Assembly (NCBI GenBank): GCA_030611205.1
Contig: JAUWQF010000008.1
Coordinates: 1-36,997, forward strand
From: Methanothrix sp.
GTDB taxonomy: Archaea > Halobacteriota > Methanosarcinia > Methanotrichales > Methanotrichaceae
DNA length: 36,997 bases
Reading direction: 5' to 3'
Positions 20,003-25,609 of the stretch are shown in pieces; within the stretch, counting starts at the first letter, position 1, and the number at the start of each line of letters is the position of its first letter. A program made the translations under genes and the position numbers. The notes under the pieces are model-generated. The model was not told the DNA's origin. It searched no databases and saw only the letters and a program-made list of their open reading frames with translations.

Positions 20003-20062
20003 AACGGTGAGAAAACTAAAAAAGAAAGATAGGACTAATAATTAATGGAATATTTCATTGGT

Positions 20063-20313
20063 TTAATAACAGTAGCATGATTCTTTGTAGCGGTAATTGT
20101 CTTTTACTGATGGGACAAAGAACGGTCGCGTAGGTGGGTTATTGAAACCTCTACCACATGCGCGACAGACAATAGTTCTGCACCCTATCGTTCTTCATGT
20201 CGTATGTGCCATTACCGACTACATTTTCCTTTACCCGCAATTCCGTACAACTTGCAATCCTCGTCAGGACATGCAGCATCATTGAATCTTGGTTTTGGAC
20301 CTTTTTCGACACA
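20063..20313 (-). pseudogene. decayed transposase N-terminus (zinc ribbon)
   Basis: Read on the minus strand across a frame change, the pieces match the N-terminal zinc ribbon of IS-type transposases: ACPDEDCKLYGIAGKG in one frame, NGTYDMKNDRV in a second, and VCRACGRGFNN in a third, with a stop at 20063-20065. No DDE catalytic part follows. The pattern C-x4-C ... C-x2-CGR-x-F is typical; the IS family cannot be fixed. It lies at the left side of the AT-rich island. Confidence 0.55.
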
Positions 20314-20480
20314 TTTTGCTACATCTACAATGAGATAGGACAGAACAGTATTTAATATCAACTCGTTGCAAGTGCGCCACCCACATTGCCACCTTATGTC
20401 AGTCAAGCCTCGCTAGATGTGCTACTCAAAGTTCTTGGCATATCACGATTATCCTCTTAACCAATGACCAATAGATATCT

Positions 20481-20491
20481 TTTTATATAAA
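20481..20491 (+). promoter_or_regulatory. TATA box of the FRG gene
   Basis: TTTTATATAAA centred about 26 bases before GTG 20512, which places the transcript start at the start codon: a leaderless message is likely, and no Shine-Dalgarno is present. Confidence 0.6.
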
Positions 20492-20511
20492 GTATTACAA
20501 CCTGTATAAAT

Positions 20512-21321
20512 GTGAGCGATATCCAGATTGAAACGGTTGCACAAGGAGTAGAATATGCAAATAAAAACCGGTCGACTAAAAACCAGTTGATGTGGTTTAG
20601 AGGCCATAGTAAAATAATACCAGGTGAACTAACACCCCGCATATTTAGGGATGATATATGTCAGAGTGAAGAGGTAGAATTCGTATTTACAGAAGAATTT
20701 AGGCGACGCGCACCAACAATATTAACAGGAGTACTAAAAAGAGATGACTACTTATCATGGCTTGTGCTTATGCAACACCATGGATGCCCTACTCGATTAT
20801 TAGACTGGACGAAGAATTTTCTTATAGCCTTATACTTTGTAGTCAGCGACAAACCTGACTGTGATGGAGAATTATGGGCAATGGATCCATCTGAATTAAA
20901 TGAGATTCACAAGTCCCAAGATTTGAAAGGTGTTGCGACTATTGACAACTGTTTTGTAAAATATTTGGTTACACAGCCAATGTATAGAAGTAATGACGAA
21001 CATCAAGATAAACTTAAAAAGAGATATCGGATAACTGACCCTCTTAAATATCCTGTAGCGTTTCAGGCACCATTGACTTTTGGCAGAATGAATTCACAAT
21101 GTAGTATGTTTACCATTCATCCTAAACCACAAAAAGATTATACAATTCCGGAAAAAATGAATGGTGAGGATTTAGTAAGGTATATCATTCGTTCTGAAAA
21201 TAAGAAGAGCATTCGGAAGGATTTGTATTTTTTAGGTATTGGGAGACAAGCCTTATTTCAGGATCTCGATTCACTTTCTCAGGACTTATTATACGAAGTA
21301 AACCATGTTCGCGGTTTTTAG
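20512..21321 (+). CDS. FRG-domain protein
   Basis: A 269-residue protein with the FRG domain (PF08867-type): WFRGH at 28-32 and QHHGCPTRLLDWT at 88-100, then LIALYF. The family is often found in mobile elements, defence islands and toxin-like genes, but its biochemical activity is not established. Base composition is clearly more AT-rich than the neighbouring housekeeping genes, with codons such as ATA and TTA frequent, a sign of transfer. The start is GTG 20512, leaderless. It converges with the dprA-like gene, so it is not in the same transcript as the helicase fusion, but it sits in the same island. Confidence 0.85.
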   Translation: MSDIQIETVAQGVEYANKNRSTKNQLMWFRGHSKIIPGELTPRIFRDDICQSEEVEFVFTEEFRRRAPTILTGVLKRDDYLSWLVLMQHHGCPTRLLDWTKNFLIALYFVVSDKPDCDGELWAMDPSELNEIHKSQDLKGVATIDNCFVKYLVTQPMYRSNDEHQDKLKKRYRITDPLKYPVAFQAPLTFGRMNSQCSMFTIHPKPQKDYTIPEKMNGEDLVRYIIRSENKKSIRKDLYFLGIGRQALFQDLDSLSQDLLYEVNHVRGF

Positions 21322-21466
21322 TTTGATTGGGGAATCACTATCAGGAAAAAATATTCCTGTGGCAAAGCCCGACATGCGGAATGTAGGCGTTCAAATTAGG
21401 TGGAGGCTCCCTTCGATACCTTTCGGATTGGGAGTTGAAGAACCTAGATTCGTTTGCCAGAACTCT

Positions 21467-22513
21467 TCAATTGCTTCCGGTCCAGTGATGCAGTGTCGAT
21501 TGGCGGTGAGCTGTATCAACATCCGTTTCCTTCGTGCTCAGCATGCTCAAATCGCCATGGGTGTCACCATAGCTGCTGAGCAGCTTTCCAAATGCATCTG
21601 CATCTGTCAGCTGCTTCCTGTTGAACTTCATGCCACCACACTTAATTAACTGGTAGTTTCCCACGGGAACATTATCGTCATCGCGTACAAAGAGCGGAAC
21701 CCACTTGTGCTTTAAGTTCTCAACCGCCCCAGCCCAGGTGCCCCCTTTCTTGAAAGCTGAGCTTATAACCAAACCCCAGTCACTCAAACAATATACGTAC
21801 TTGTTGCGGCCCATGGCATTGCCAACATTGAAGGCAGCATTTGGGTCATAAGGGGATGCCAACACTAGGTCTCCGGCACGCAAAGCCTCACGATATTTAC
21901 CAGAGACTGCAACTCTGGCCAGACTGCCTGCCAGCACGCAAACAACGCACCCGCCTTCGCTCAATGCAGCAAACATCGCTTCGCTGTCCACGCCTCGTGC
22001 CCCACCGGAGATGACTTGTAAACCTTGCTGGGCACATAAGCTGGCAACCATGTGCGTTACTGCAATTCCCTCGTCGTCGACATCACGAGAGCCGACAACG
22101 GCCAATCCACCACTGGAAAGTAATGTTTGGTTCCCTGCACCGTAGATCAGCGGAGGTGCCAACCTGCCCAGCCGATCTTTCCAACGCTGTGGGTAACCCT
22201 CGTCGCTCAGGCTCAGTACCCACAGCCCTTTATTGGTCCAAGTCTCGACGATGAGTGCAAGGGCTCCACCGCGAGCAAGTAGAGCACATAAGCGTTCGGG
22301 ATCTATTCGGCTGCCTTTTAATCCAGACAGTATGCTAGCGTCGAGTGGCCCTAATAGGTCTGCTGGTTGGAGACTTTGGTGTTGCAACCATTGGGCAACA
22401 TTATAATACTCTACAGGCGTCAAAGGCTGCGGATAGGCCTGTCGGTTCTGCCCCAGGTTGCCACAAAGCAAGAGGATAACCTGTGTATCTTCACTCAATA
22501 TGTGACTGGTCAT
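21467..22513 (-). CDS. DprA/Smf-like DNA-processing protein
   Basis: A 348-residue protein with the DprA Rossmann-type domain: LAVVGSRD (137-144), ISGGARGVDSEAM (168-180) and GGCVVCVLAG (187-196), the known DprA signature. An N-terminal helical part of about 100 residues precedes it, and a C-terminal extension of unknown type follows. Classical DprA binds single-stranded DNA and loads RecA in transformation. ATG 22513 overlaps the stop of the preceding gene by one base (TGATG) with GGAGGATAT before it, so it is translated by coupling with the radical SAM-RecQ-PRTase fusion; the two products probably act together. Confidence 0.9.
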   Translation of the reverse strand: MTSHILSEDTQVILLLCGNLGQNRQAYPQPLTPVEYYNVAQWLQHQSLQPADLLGPLDASILSGLKGSRIDPERLCALLARGGALALIVETWTNKGLWVLSLSDEGYPQRWKDRLGRLAPPLIYGAGNQTLLSSGGLAVVGSRDVDDEGIAVTHMVASLCAQQGLQVISGGARGVDSEAMFAALSEGGCVVCVLAGSLARVAVSGKYREALRAGDLVLASPYDPNAAFNVGNAMGRNKYVYCLSDWGLVISSAFKKGGTWAGAVENLKHKWVPLFVRDDDNVPVGNYQLIKCGGMKFNRKQLTDADAFGKLLSSYGDTHGDLSMLSTKETDVDTAHRQSTLHHWTGSN

Positions 22514-25419
22514 CAATATCCTCCCAAACTCGTATCAGCCAGCGCCAGCGGGAAGACTGCTCCACTACCAGCTGATCGCAAAAGTGCTGCGATCACCGTG
22601 AACGTCCACCGCGAGTCAACCACGTCGTCAATCAGCAGAACAGGGGCACGACGTGTAAGATTATGATCGACCTCAAACGCGCCTGCTATGTTCCGTGCCT
22701 GGCAATAGCTGTTTCTCATCAGCTTCTGAGGTTCTGTCGCACGGATCTTATATATACATTCGACATAGGGAAGACCAAGAGACGTCGCCAACCGCTGCGC
22801 CAAATCAGGAACGAGTATGGGTTTGTTCAGCGAAGGAACACAGGTTACCCACTCAGGCGCAGGAGTTGGTTGCCAGCGCTTCTTAGTCATCTCTGTCGCA
22901 GAATTAACGAGAACGTCATCGAAATGACCCGCCGACTTACCAGCTTTTACCAGATTACCCCAGCCAGCATCGTTCCAAAATGAGAGCACTCGTCCTTCTT
23001 CGGCCCGAAGTGGAATTGGGATACTCCCCTGCCAATCGTATTGCGCAAGTGCATTACTTGGCCAAAAGTAGCACGGTTTGATAGGATGCTCATTGCGATG
23101 GCGCAGGAACTGTGCTGCTTGATTAGCAAGTTCATTAGAACAAGTTTCCGGTAGCAGCGCCCTTCCTACGCAGAATGTGCAGCAGCCACATGGAATTGGT
23201 TTTGGGTCGTCTAGCTCTTCTTGCAGAAAGGCCATTAGACAAGTGGTGTTTTGCATATAAGCTTGCATTCGGTCTTGCTCATAGTGACGAATGGCAGTTA
23301 ATCGTTTAATCTTAGCTCGATCTGGCACGTAATTCACGGCAGTGGCATACCAACGTGGTCCATCTTTGGCTACTGGAGACGGTGTTTCCACTGCCAGGAG
23401 CTTCAAAACTTTCTTAATCTGTCCTCTGCTTAGGTTAACATGTTGCTCGATCATATTAACTGTGAGTCCATCTTCTGCTTGTTCCAGCGCTTTTAGTACT
23501 TGGCTGGTATGAGCTTCCGGTGGGAACGCCGTGTTTATAAAATACTCAATGATCTCTTGGTCTTCATCACCAGTTAACATGATACCATAAGCCTGGTCGA
23601 TCGCTCGACCAGCACGCCCTACTTGCTGATAGTAATGAACTACCGAGCCGGGTCGCTGAAAATGAATCACGAAGCCCATATCTGGCTTGTCAAAGCCCAT
23701 CCCCAACGAGGTCGTCGCTACTAACACCTTAACCCGATTTTTCAGCAGCTTTAGTTCCAATTCTTTACGCCGAGAAGTATCCATACGTCCATGATAGGGG
23801 TGAGCGTCGATCCCCTGTAGTTGCAGCCATTGTGAAATTACCTCTGTATCCTTTATGGTAAGGGCATAAACAATTCCGCTGCCAGGCAACCGTGGTAGCT
23901 GCTCAGCTAGCCAGGCCATTCTATCCGCTTGATCGGGTAGCTTGATATTTTGCAGTCGCAGGCTCTCACGCGCTAGCGGTCCCCGAACCACGTGCAGATC
24001 AGTACCAAGCTGGTTCTTAATATCTTCCACAACACGATTGTTCGCCGTTGCCGTGGTAGCAAGAACGGGAATGTTCTTTGGGAGCGCCTGAAGGATGCGG
24101 ACTATGCGGCGGTAGTCTGGGCGGAAATCGTGTCCCCAGTCAGAGATACAGTGAGCCTCGTCCACAACAAACAGTCCGATCTTGCTAGCGACGGGCTTTA
24201 GCATCTGCTCACGAAACTCGTCATTTGCCAGACGCTCGGGTGAGACGAGCAGAATATCAACTTGGTCATTACGCAGTTGCTCTTTTACTTGTTGCCACTC
24301 ATTTCGATTGCTTGAGTTTATCGAGCTGGCACGCAGTCCTAGTCGCTCTGCTGCCCGTATCTGGTCGCGCATCAACGAAAGCAAAGGTGAAATCAGCAAC
24401 GTTGGACCTGCACCACGCTCACGGAGCATACGAGTGGCGAGGAAATAAACTAAACTTTTTCCCCATCCTGTGCACTGGACCACAAGCATTCTGGTCCTCT
24501 CTTGGACCAGTTGTTCGACTGTCTCCCATTGCCCATCACGAAAATTGACAGTTGGATCGTTTAGTGCTTTCCGGAGGAACCTCAAGCCTTTCTGATATTG
24601 AGTGGGCTCGGTCGTTGATTCATTTGATACTTCAATTTTATCCGAGAACTTTGTTTCTCGCTTTCTTGAAGTAACAATTTTTGCTAAGTCCCACTTAACT
24701 TGGTATTCGAGCCCCAAACACTTGCACAGCTCTTCTGCTTCCGTTCGGAATCTTACCCAGTCGATCTCTGCCTCTAGTCTTTGAACATCTGACGGATAAT
24801 ACGGATTGCCAAATGTAGTCAGCTTTCCGATAAAAGCGAAGTCGACAAAACCTGCCACTGCCTCAATAAGTCTCAATGTCTGAGCGGGATCTAGTACGGG
24901 TTCGAAGGAGACATAAGTTGAAATACCCCAATATTCCTTTGCCCAAAGAAGAGCTTTAATTCGTTCGGATGGCGGAGAAGCACCCGGTTCCCATTTGATT
25001 GAATCAACCTCGTTATCACAGGTTAATGTCACACCAAACCAGTCATCAACAGAAAATAAATCAAAATCCCTCATCGCATCTGGGCCGTTCTTCGTCTGGA
25101 TCTGAAAATGACCACCACTGGCGTTGATGGACTGTAAAATATCTCTGGTCCTCGAAGTATCCCAGCCGGTTGGATAAGGATCACACATAACGCAAAGATG
25201 GATTGGATATGGAATATTGTAGTGCTCCAGATCATAACGGATGTTATCGGGTGATGCCTTCTTTACGATGCCACGGTTTGTTTTAAAAGCATGTCTGGAT
25301 TGTCTAAGGTAAGTGGGAACGAAACAGTATCGGCAACCATGTGGACAACCATGATAAATATTCAAAGAGTGATGGCTATATTCGCTGGCGGTACCTTTTG
25401 ATAGCGTGATTGCTTTCAT
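22513..25419 (-). CDS. radical SAM (SPL-like) - RecQ helicase - phosphoribosyltransferase fusion
   Basis: A 968-residue three-part protein. Residues 1-265 are a spore-photoproduct-lyase-type radical SAM domain with CPHGCRYC (Cys25, 29, 32). Residues about 275-605 are a RecQ-family superfamily 2 helicase: TGWGKS (317-322), DEAHCISDWGHDFRPD (420-435), ATTATAN, and VGRAGR (600-605). Then come a RecQ-type zinc site (CGCCTFC at about 744-750) and a winged-helix-like part. From about 865 to the end is a ComF-like phosphoribosyltransferase, with LLIDDVVDSRWTFT at 928-941 as the PRPP loop. All key motifs are intact. ATG 25419 follows GGTGAT; a TTG five codons earlier is less likely. Coupled to dprA. 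Confidence 0.9.
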   Translation of the reverse strand: MKAITLSKGTASEYSHHSLNIYHGCPHGCRYCFVPTYLRQSRHAFKTNRGIVKKASPDNIRYDLEHYNIPYPIHLCVMCDPYPTGWDTSRTRDILQSINASGGHFQIQTKNGPDAMRDFDLFSVDDWFGVTLTCDNEVDSIKWEPGASPPSERIKALLWAKEYWGISTYVSFEPVLDPAQTLRLIEAVAGFVDFAFIGKLTTFGNPYYPSDVQRLEAEIDWVRFRTEAEELCKCLGLEYQVKWDLAKIVTSRKRETKFSDKIEVSNESTTEPTQYQKGLRFLRKALNDPTVNFRDGQWETVEQLVQERTRMLVVQCTGWGKSLVYFLATRMLRERGAGPTLLISPLLSLMRDQIRAAERLGLRASSINSSNRNEWQQVKEQLRNDQVDILLVSPERLANDEFREQMLKPVASKIGLFVVDEAHCISDWGHDFRPDYRRIVRILQALPKNIPVLATTATANNRVVEDIKNQLGTDLHVVRGPLARESLRLQNIKLPDQADRMAWLAEQLPRLPGSGIVYALTIKDTEVISQWLQLQGIDAHPYHGRMDTSRRKELELKLLKNRVKVLVATTSLGMGFDKPDMGFVIHFQRPGSVVHYYQQVGRAGRAIDQAYGIMLTGDEDQEIIEYFINTAFPPEAHTSQVLKALEQAEDGLTVNMIEQHVNLSRGQIKKVLKLLAVETPSPVAKDGPRWYATAVNYVPDRAKIKRLTAIRHYEQDRMQAYMQNTTCLMAFLQEELDDPKPIPCGCCTFCVGRALLPETCSNELANQAAQFLRHRNEHPIKPCYFWPSNALAQYDWQGSIPIPLRAEEGRVLSFWNDAGWGNLVKAGKSAGHFDDVLVNSATEMTKKRWQPTPAPEWVTCVPSLNKPILVPDLAQRLATSLGLPYVECIYKIRATEPQKLMRNSYCQARNIAGAFEVDHNLTRRAPVLLIDDVVDSRWTFTVIAALLRSAGSGAVFPLALADTSLGGY

Positions 25420-25609
25420 TGTATTATCACCCAACAGCCACCACCATATGATTCAGCCCAATCACCGGCTCTCCGACGCGAAGCGCATGCGGAGCATCTG
25501 CGATAGCCCCGCGCCCAGAGTCGTCCAAGGTTGAACTTGACGACGAATAATATGGGGCCGGATAGTTACGGCAAAGAAAAACTAAAAATATGACAGCCTG
25601 TCGGATCGT

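What the first reader, a model, noticed from the sequence alone, without database searches (positions are those of the whole stretch)
21467..25419. Radical SAM-RecQ-phosphoribosyltransferase fusion coupled to DprA
Seen: a single frame joins an SPL-like radical SAM domain (CPHGCRYC), a complete RecQ-type helicase with zinc site, and a ComF-like PRPP-binding domain. The dprA-like start overlaps its stop (TGATG) behind a good ribosome site. Known: ComF helicase, ComF phosphoribosyltransferase and DprA work together on single-stranded DNA in bacterial transformation, and RecQ, phosphoribosyltransferase and DprA-like genes recur in defence neighbourhoods. Inference: this is a DNA-processing machine, defensive or repair-related, to which a radical SAM activity has been added, perhaps for base modification or photoproduct repair.
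Basis: partly seen in the sequence, partly recalled or inferred. Interest (0 to 1): 0.88.

Follow-up and report, generated by a model that had tools for sequence, protein, structure and literature searches.

The report
Toxin–antitoxin pair with added radical enzyme
An archaeon carries a known virus-defence gene pair (a helicase-toxin called PsyrT and its antitoxin PsyrA), but here the toxin has gained an extra enzyme of a kind otherwise found mostly in viruses, a design not reported before and probably aimed at chemically altering or sensing viral DNA.

Summary
One 968-aa frame (22513-25419, minus strand) joins a radical SAM domain, a RecQ helicase and a ComF-like phosphoribosyltransferase. 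A DprA-like gene starts inside its stop codon.

What is new is the N-terminal radical SAM domain. It keeps every residue invariant in its family. It belongs to an uncharacterised viral family (PHROG 13321; at least 488 IMG/VR loci) and groups with viral rather than host copies. In sister archaea, relatives are fused to replication primases/helicases.

The fusion occurred once among about 80 PsyrT-bearing genomes sampled. However, two other PsyrT proteins carry RNase HI or exonuclease I in the same position, so appending nucleic-acid enzymes to PsyrT recurs. The locus is a 5.6-kb low-GC island with an FRG-domain gene, absent from a 95%-identical congener.

Best reading: a PsyrTA abortive-infection pair whose toxin acquired a viral-type DNA-directed radical SAM enzyme. 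The pair's identity is firm; the radical SAM role is inference. Spore-photoproduct repair and competence are poorly supported. New variant of a known kind.

The parts
22513..25419 (-). radSAM-PsyrT fusion gene, 968 aa: radical SAM (1-250), linker (about 251-275), RecQ helicase with zinc site and PRTase (276-965)
24670..25419 (-). SPL-like radical SAM domain (residues 1-250), PHROG 13321; CPHGCRYC at 25324-25347
   Evidence: AlphaFold2 pLDDT 94; SPL among the best PDB folds
22516..24594 (-). PsyrT part: RecQ helicase plus PRTase (PADLOC PDLC03928, residues 276-965, 968 bits); PRPP-binding motif at 22603-22644
21467..22513 (-). psyrA: DprA-like antitoxin, 348 aa, ATG overlaps the psyrT stop; lacks the C-terminal winged helix of homologues
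20512..21321 (+). FRG-domain gene (PADLOC candidate family PDC-S15), convergent with psyrTA on the same island
   Evidence: no homologue found in the stretches fetched around 62 other PsyrT genes
20003..25576 (.). strain-variable island; absent from congener G001, which is collinear on both sides at 95% identity
   Evidence: third-position GC 0.31-0.53 against 0.61-0.82 in flanking genes

Best explanation
This is a PsyrTA (RqlHI)-type toxin-antitoxin defence pair on an accessory island, whose toxin has gained at its N terminus a viral-type, SPL-like radical SAM enzyme. Shown here: identity and order of the parts, intact active-site motifs, obligatory fusion, island location, viral kinship of the radical SAM. 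Established for relatives: RqlH is a 3'-5' helicase whose PRTase domain is genotoxic; RqlI (PsyrA) binds and neutralises it; in the related ShosTA the PRTase disturbs purine nucleotide pools and the DprA-like antitoxin binds DNA. Inferred: the RecQ motor loads on exposed invader or replication-fork DNA; PsyrA holds the PRTase in check until infection disturbs DNA; the PRTase then poisons nucleotide metabolism and stops growth. The radical SAM domain acts on a base in the DNA strand that the helicase opens, most simply a modified or otherwise unusual base of viral DNA, so that recognition or editing of such DNA is coupled to toxin release. My estimates: the pair's identity about 0.9; a nucleic-acid substrate for the radical SAM about 0.5; coupling to viral modified bases about 0.25.
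For: PADLOC PsyrT 968 bits and PsyrA 398 bits; 50 of 62 other PsyrT loci have PsyrA directly downstream. PRPP motif intact, the motif mapped as toxic in RqlH (PMC4670107). All radical SAM family invariants kept. Radical SAM belongs to a viral family: PHROG 13321, at least 488 IMG/VR loci, groups with viral copies at 98/94 support. Substrate hints: relatives fused to three kinds of primase/helicase; DNA methyltransferases next to viral copies 9/107 against 3/107 in controls, plus ParB, Mom and nucleoside deoxyribosyltransferase; SPL, a DNA-acting enzyme, is the top PDB profile hit (E 0.0055) and among the best fold hits (TMq 0.67). The same PsyrT slot holds RNase HI or exonuclease I elsewhere. 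Island.
Against: The radSAM-PsyrT fusion was found once only, so conservation cannot prove that it is selected. Methyltransferase enrichment is small (9 against 3 of 107) and not significant alone. No radical SAM homologue lies near any of 62 other PsyrT loci. The full-length structure model was poor (pLDDT 57, pTM 0.31), so no domain contact is shown. The genome is a fragmented draft without reads here. I know of no tested activity for this viral radical SAM family.
Confidence: 0.55

Rival explanations
1. Integrated decoy: the radical SAM domain was captured from a virus as bait. A viral factor that binds or modifies its own radical SAM protein, or the primase carrying it, would also hit the fused copy and release the PRTase toxin. 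Catalysis would be dispensable.
For: The domain groups with viral copies, and relatives sit on replication proteins of mobile elements. A single fusion on a variable island fits capture.
Against: All invariant residues are kept, which a pure bait would not need. Other PsyrT proteins carry nucleases, not viral mimics, in the same slot.
Confidence: 0.15
2. Photoproduct or base-damage repair: a helicase-coupled SPL-like repair enzyme, with the PRTase recycling nucleotides.
For: SPL is the best PDB profile hit and among the best folds; RecQ helicases work in repair.
Against: The SPL catalytic Cys140 aligns with Val77, not with a Cys, and neighbouring Cys76/79 are not conserved in the family. The locus is absent from a 95%-identical congener and PsyrT from all 49 other family members searched. 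The partner is a known toxin-antitoxin pair.
Confidence: 0.08
3. Accidental fusion with an idle passenger: PsyrTA works normally and the radical SAM domain was joined by a chance deletion.
For: Found once only. The radical SAM part has a different base composition (GC3 0.40 against 0.47) and a long branch.
Against: The radical SAM frame and motifs are intact, and the PsyrT start codon is gone, so any passenger is made with every toxin molecule. Two unrelated nucleic-acid enzymes occupy the same slot in other PsyrT proteins.
Confidence: 0.15
4. Assembly chimera joining two contigs in frame.
For: Draft genome in 181 contigs; composition differs between the parts.
Against: One continuous frame without stop, frameshift or N; the flank is collinear with a congener up to 157 bp before the start of the fusion gene.
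Confidence: 0.05

Closest known systems
PsyrTA / RqlHI toxin-antitoxin system
   Same: RecQ helicase-PRTase toxin followed by an overlapping DprA-like antitoxin; 49-63% identity to PsyrT from a Nostoc plasmid, E. coli, Chloroploca and Thiomargarita
   Different: adds an N-terminal radical SAM domain; the antitoxin lacks the C-terminal winged helix; archaeal host
ShosTA (PRTase toxin plus DprA-like antitoxin)
   Same: same pairing of PRTase toxin and DprA-like antitoxin; the PsyrA here also hits ShosA (74 bits) and the solved ShosA chain 9vzo
   Different: ShosTA as described (PMC9122126) is a PRTase plus DprA; helicase and radical SAM are extra here
Spore photoproduct lyase (SPL)
   Same: radical SAM fold with CxxxCxxC; TMq 0.67; best PDB profile hit
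   Different: about 14% identity; SPL catalytic Cys not at the aligned position; no spore context
PHROG 13321 viral radical SAM family
   Same: domain match (1e-20), groups with IMG/VR copies
   Different: viral copies stand alone (226-348 aa) or are fused to primases in archaeal elements; no other PsyrT fusion found
PsyrT proteins with RNase HI (Chloroploca mongolica, L058) or exonuclease I (L244/L269)
   Same: extra nucleic-acid enzyme at the PsyrT N terminus with PsyrA downstream
   Different: other enzyme; the exonuclease fusion falls in another PsyrT clade

Membership tests
PsyrTA (RqlHI) | RecQ-family helicase with Walker A, DEAH and zinc cysteines | tested here: met
PsyrTA (RqlHI) | C-terminal ComF-like PRTase with PRPP-binding motif | tested here: met
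   LLIDDVVDSRWT, aligned with the E. coli homologue; PADLOC PsyrT over residues 276-965
PsyrTA (RqlHI) | DprA-like antitoxin gene directly downstream | tested here: met
   PsyrA 398 bits, start overlaps stop
PsyrTA (RqlHI) | C-terminal helix-turn-helix in PsyrA (common, not defining; shown dispensable for neutralising RqlH) | tested here: not met
   homology ends near residue 315; dispensable in PMC4670107
PsyrTA (RqlHI) | toxicity of PsyrT and neutralisation by PsyrA | not testable with these tools
   needs expression in a laboratory strain
ShosTA | PRTase toxin without a helicase | tested here: not met
   RecQ in the same chain; antitoxin scores 398 bits as PsyrA against 74 as ShosA
Spore photoproduct lyase | radical SAM CxxxCxxC and fold | tested here: met
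Spore photoproduct lyase | conserved catalytic Cys (Cys140 in the solved enzyme) | tested here: not met
   aligned column holds Val77; Cys76 and Cys79 flank it but are not conserved in the family
DUF5131 (Pfam PF07505) | score over the curated cut-off | tested here: not met
   20.9 bits against a cut-off of 28.9
PHROG 13321 viral radical SAM | profile match and tree position among viral copies | tested here: met
   75 bits; 98/94 support
ComF/DprA competence machinery | part of conserved gene order in the lineage | tested here: not met
   strain-variable island, only PsyrT among 50 family genomes

The most novel reading that the evidence does not exclude
PsyrT toxins are modular sensors in which different nucleic-acid enzymes (exonuclease I, RNase HI, radical SAM) feed a RecQ-PRTase toxin. 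In this archaeon the radical SAM arm edits or reads modified bases of viral DNA and so triggers the toxin, a radical SAM enzyme acting on DNA within a defence system.
Probability: 0.2. Interest if true: 0.85.

Novelty: new variant of a known kind. Interest (0 to 1): 0.55.

Why it matters
What activates PsyrTA is unclear, and the large viral family PHROG 13321 has no known function. A single protein that fuses the two makes both testable. If the radical SAM domain acts on DNA, it points to an unknown viral DNA modification and to a defence toxin that responds to it. The finding of exonuclease I and RNase HI in the same slot suggests a general design: the PsyrT N terminus as a socket for nucleic-acid enzymes.

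Tried and rejected
Competence or DNA-uptake reading: no conserved context. Read-through of two genes: no usable start in the linker. Other long PsyrT frames checked as possible fusions and dismissed: L047 joins across a run of N; L085 runs in from an upstream transporter-like frame; L263 extension looks non-coding; L040/L041 are longer at the C terminus only. Close-relative scan of genome contigs gave four PsyrT and no radSAM fusion; the viral-contig scan gave no PsyrT. The full-length AlphaFold2 model was too poor to use; three mixed alignments (A4, A7, A8) misplaced the radical SAM rows and were not used. Radical SAM domain not detected in the stretches (about 5-18 kb) fetched around 62 other PsyrT genes. 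No Rfam match in the window. Literature searches for radical SAM with PsyrT/RecQ/DprA or with phage DNA hypermodification found no description of the fusion.

Full report
Observation. The minus-strand frame 22513-25419 encodes 968 aa with a radical SAM domain, a RecQ-type helicase with zinc cysteines and a PRPP-binding PRTase motif. The DprA-like gene starts at an ATG inside the TGATG overlap behind GGGAGGAT. The helicase part has no usable start of its own: the linker holds only two unsupported TTG codons, and the first ATG lies six residues before Walker A. So if the gene is expressed, radical SAM and helicase are made as one chain.

Identity. PADLOC names the two proteins PsyrT (968 bits, residues 276-965) and PsyrA (398 bits). 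Relatives at 48-63% identity occur on a Nostoc plasmid, in E. coli, Acinetobacter, Sinorhizobium, Chloroploca and Thiomargarita, and PsyrA lies directly downstream in 50 of 62 loci examined. This is the system known as PsyrTA or RqlHI. In RqlHI the PRTase domain is genotoxic, the PRPP-pocket residue D663 is needed for most of the effect, and RqlI binds and restrains the toxin (PMC4670107). The related DprA-PRTase pair ShosTA protects against phages, its toxin disturbs purine pools, and its antitoxin binds DNA (PMC9122126, PMC12593503). The PsyrA here lacks the C-terminal winged helix; in RqlI that part was dispensable for neutralising RqlH.

The added domain. Residues 1-250 form a radical SAM fold (AlphaFold2 pLDDT 94). 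All residues invariant in an 11-member alignment are kept, including CxxxCxxC. A profile of 51 members finds only spore photoproduct lyase near significance in the PDB (E 0.0055), and SPL gives the highest query-normalised TM-score listed (0.67) in the fold search, though other radical SAM enzymes come close. But SPL Cys140 aligns with Val77, so it is not an SPL by that test. In the tree the window copy groups with viral copies (98/94), on a long branch, apart from the copies of sister archaea. Those archaeal copies include C-terminal domains of three replication proteins with different cores (NrS-1-like, Prim-Pol, D5_N/DUF5906), so the PsyrT fusion is a separate event. Genes next to the viral copies match DNA methyltransferases more often than control genes from the same contigs (best family 9 against 3 of 107), and include ParB, Mom and nucleoside deoxyribosyltransferase families. 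This is a hint of DNA-directed function, not proof.

How often. PsyrT was sought in five phylum samples and in the 50 genomes held of the family: about 83 genomes in the phylum samples carry a PsyrT-grade match, and only the window has the radical SAM domain among those whose N termini were read or whose open frame is long enough to hold one. It is the only PsyrT in its family. Two others carry a different enzyme at the same place: RNase HI in Chloroploca mongolica (Pfam 1.4e-18) and exonuclease I in L244/L269 (RNase_T 1.6e-17 and Exonuc_X-T_C 2.1e-27), both with PsyrA downstream. The exonuclease fusion lies in a different supported PsyrT clade, so it is an independent event; the relation of the RNase HI and radical SAM carriers is unresolved in the tree, but the two added domains are unrelated.

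Location. The congener G001 (95% nucleotide identity) matches the window on both sides but lacks 20003-25576. The island's third-position GC is 0.31-0.53, against 0.61-0.82 for flanking genes. It also holds an FRG-domain gene, a PADLOC candidate defence family. The radical SAM has no second copy in this genome at E <= 1e-15.

Mechanism. Firm: a PsyrTA-type operon with intact motifs, on an accessory island. From relatives: helicase, PRTase toxin, DprA-like antitoxin. Inferred: the radical SAM domain acts on DNA opened by the helicase, and a viral base modification is the simplest target, given its viral kin and their neighbours. The rivals are a decoy captured from a virus, an idle passenger, damage repair, and an assembly chimera; each is set out with its test in its own section.

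Verdict. A known system with a new, so far unique, domain architecture, and a wider pattern of enzyme fusions at the PsyrT N terminus that the literature searched here does not describe.

Noticed in passing
L058 5446-8067 (+), Candidatus Chloroploca mongolica: PsyrT with an N-terminal RNase HI domain, PsyrA downstream.
   Followed up: yes
   Followed up: yes
L024 4555-7788, L026 1253-5299, L027 1003-5037: Radical SAM domain fused to the C terminus of three different primase/helicase proteins of mobile elements in sister archaea; L024 has a terminase gene downstream.
   Followed up: partly
L040 376-2763, L041 1501-4035 and relatives (family f10): Distant PsyrT-like RecQ-PRTase proteins with a C-terminal extension (looks HRDC-like by eye) and a DprA-like gene next to it, in several related archaea.
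   Followed up: no
window 20012-20022 and 25578-25588: An 11-bp direct repeat AAAACTAAAAA at both edges of the island, perhaps a target-site duplication; could be chance in A-rich sequence.
   Followed up: no
window 20146-20477: Sequence repeated at several places in the congener G001; the minus strand reads like the remnant of an insertion-sequence protein.
   Followed up: no
window 20512-21321: FRG-domain gene (PADLOC PDC-S15) on the same island; whether it works with psyrTA is unknown.
   Followed up: partly
L035, L208-L210: Haloarchaeal PsyrT proteins without a detectable PsyrA next to them.
   Followed up: no
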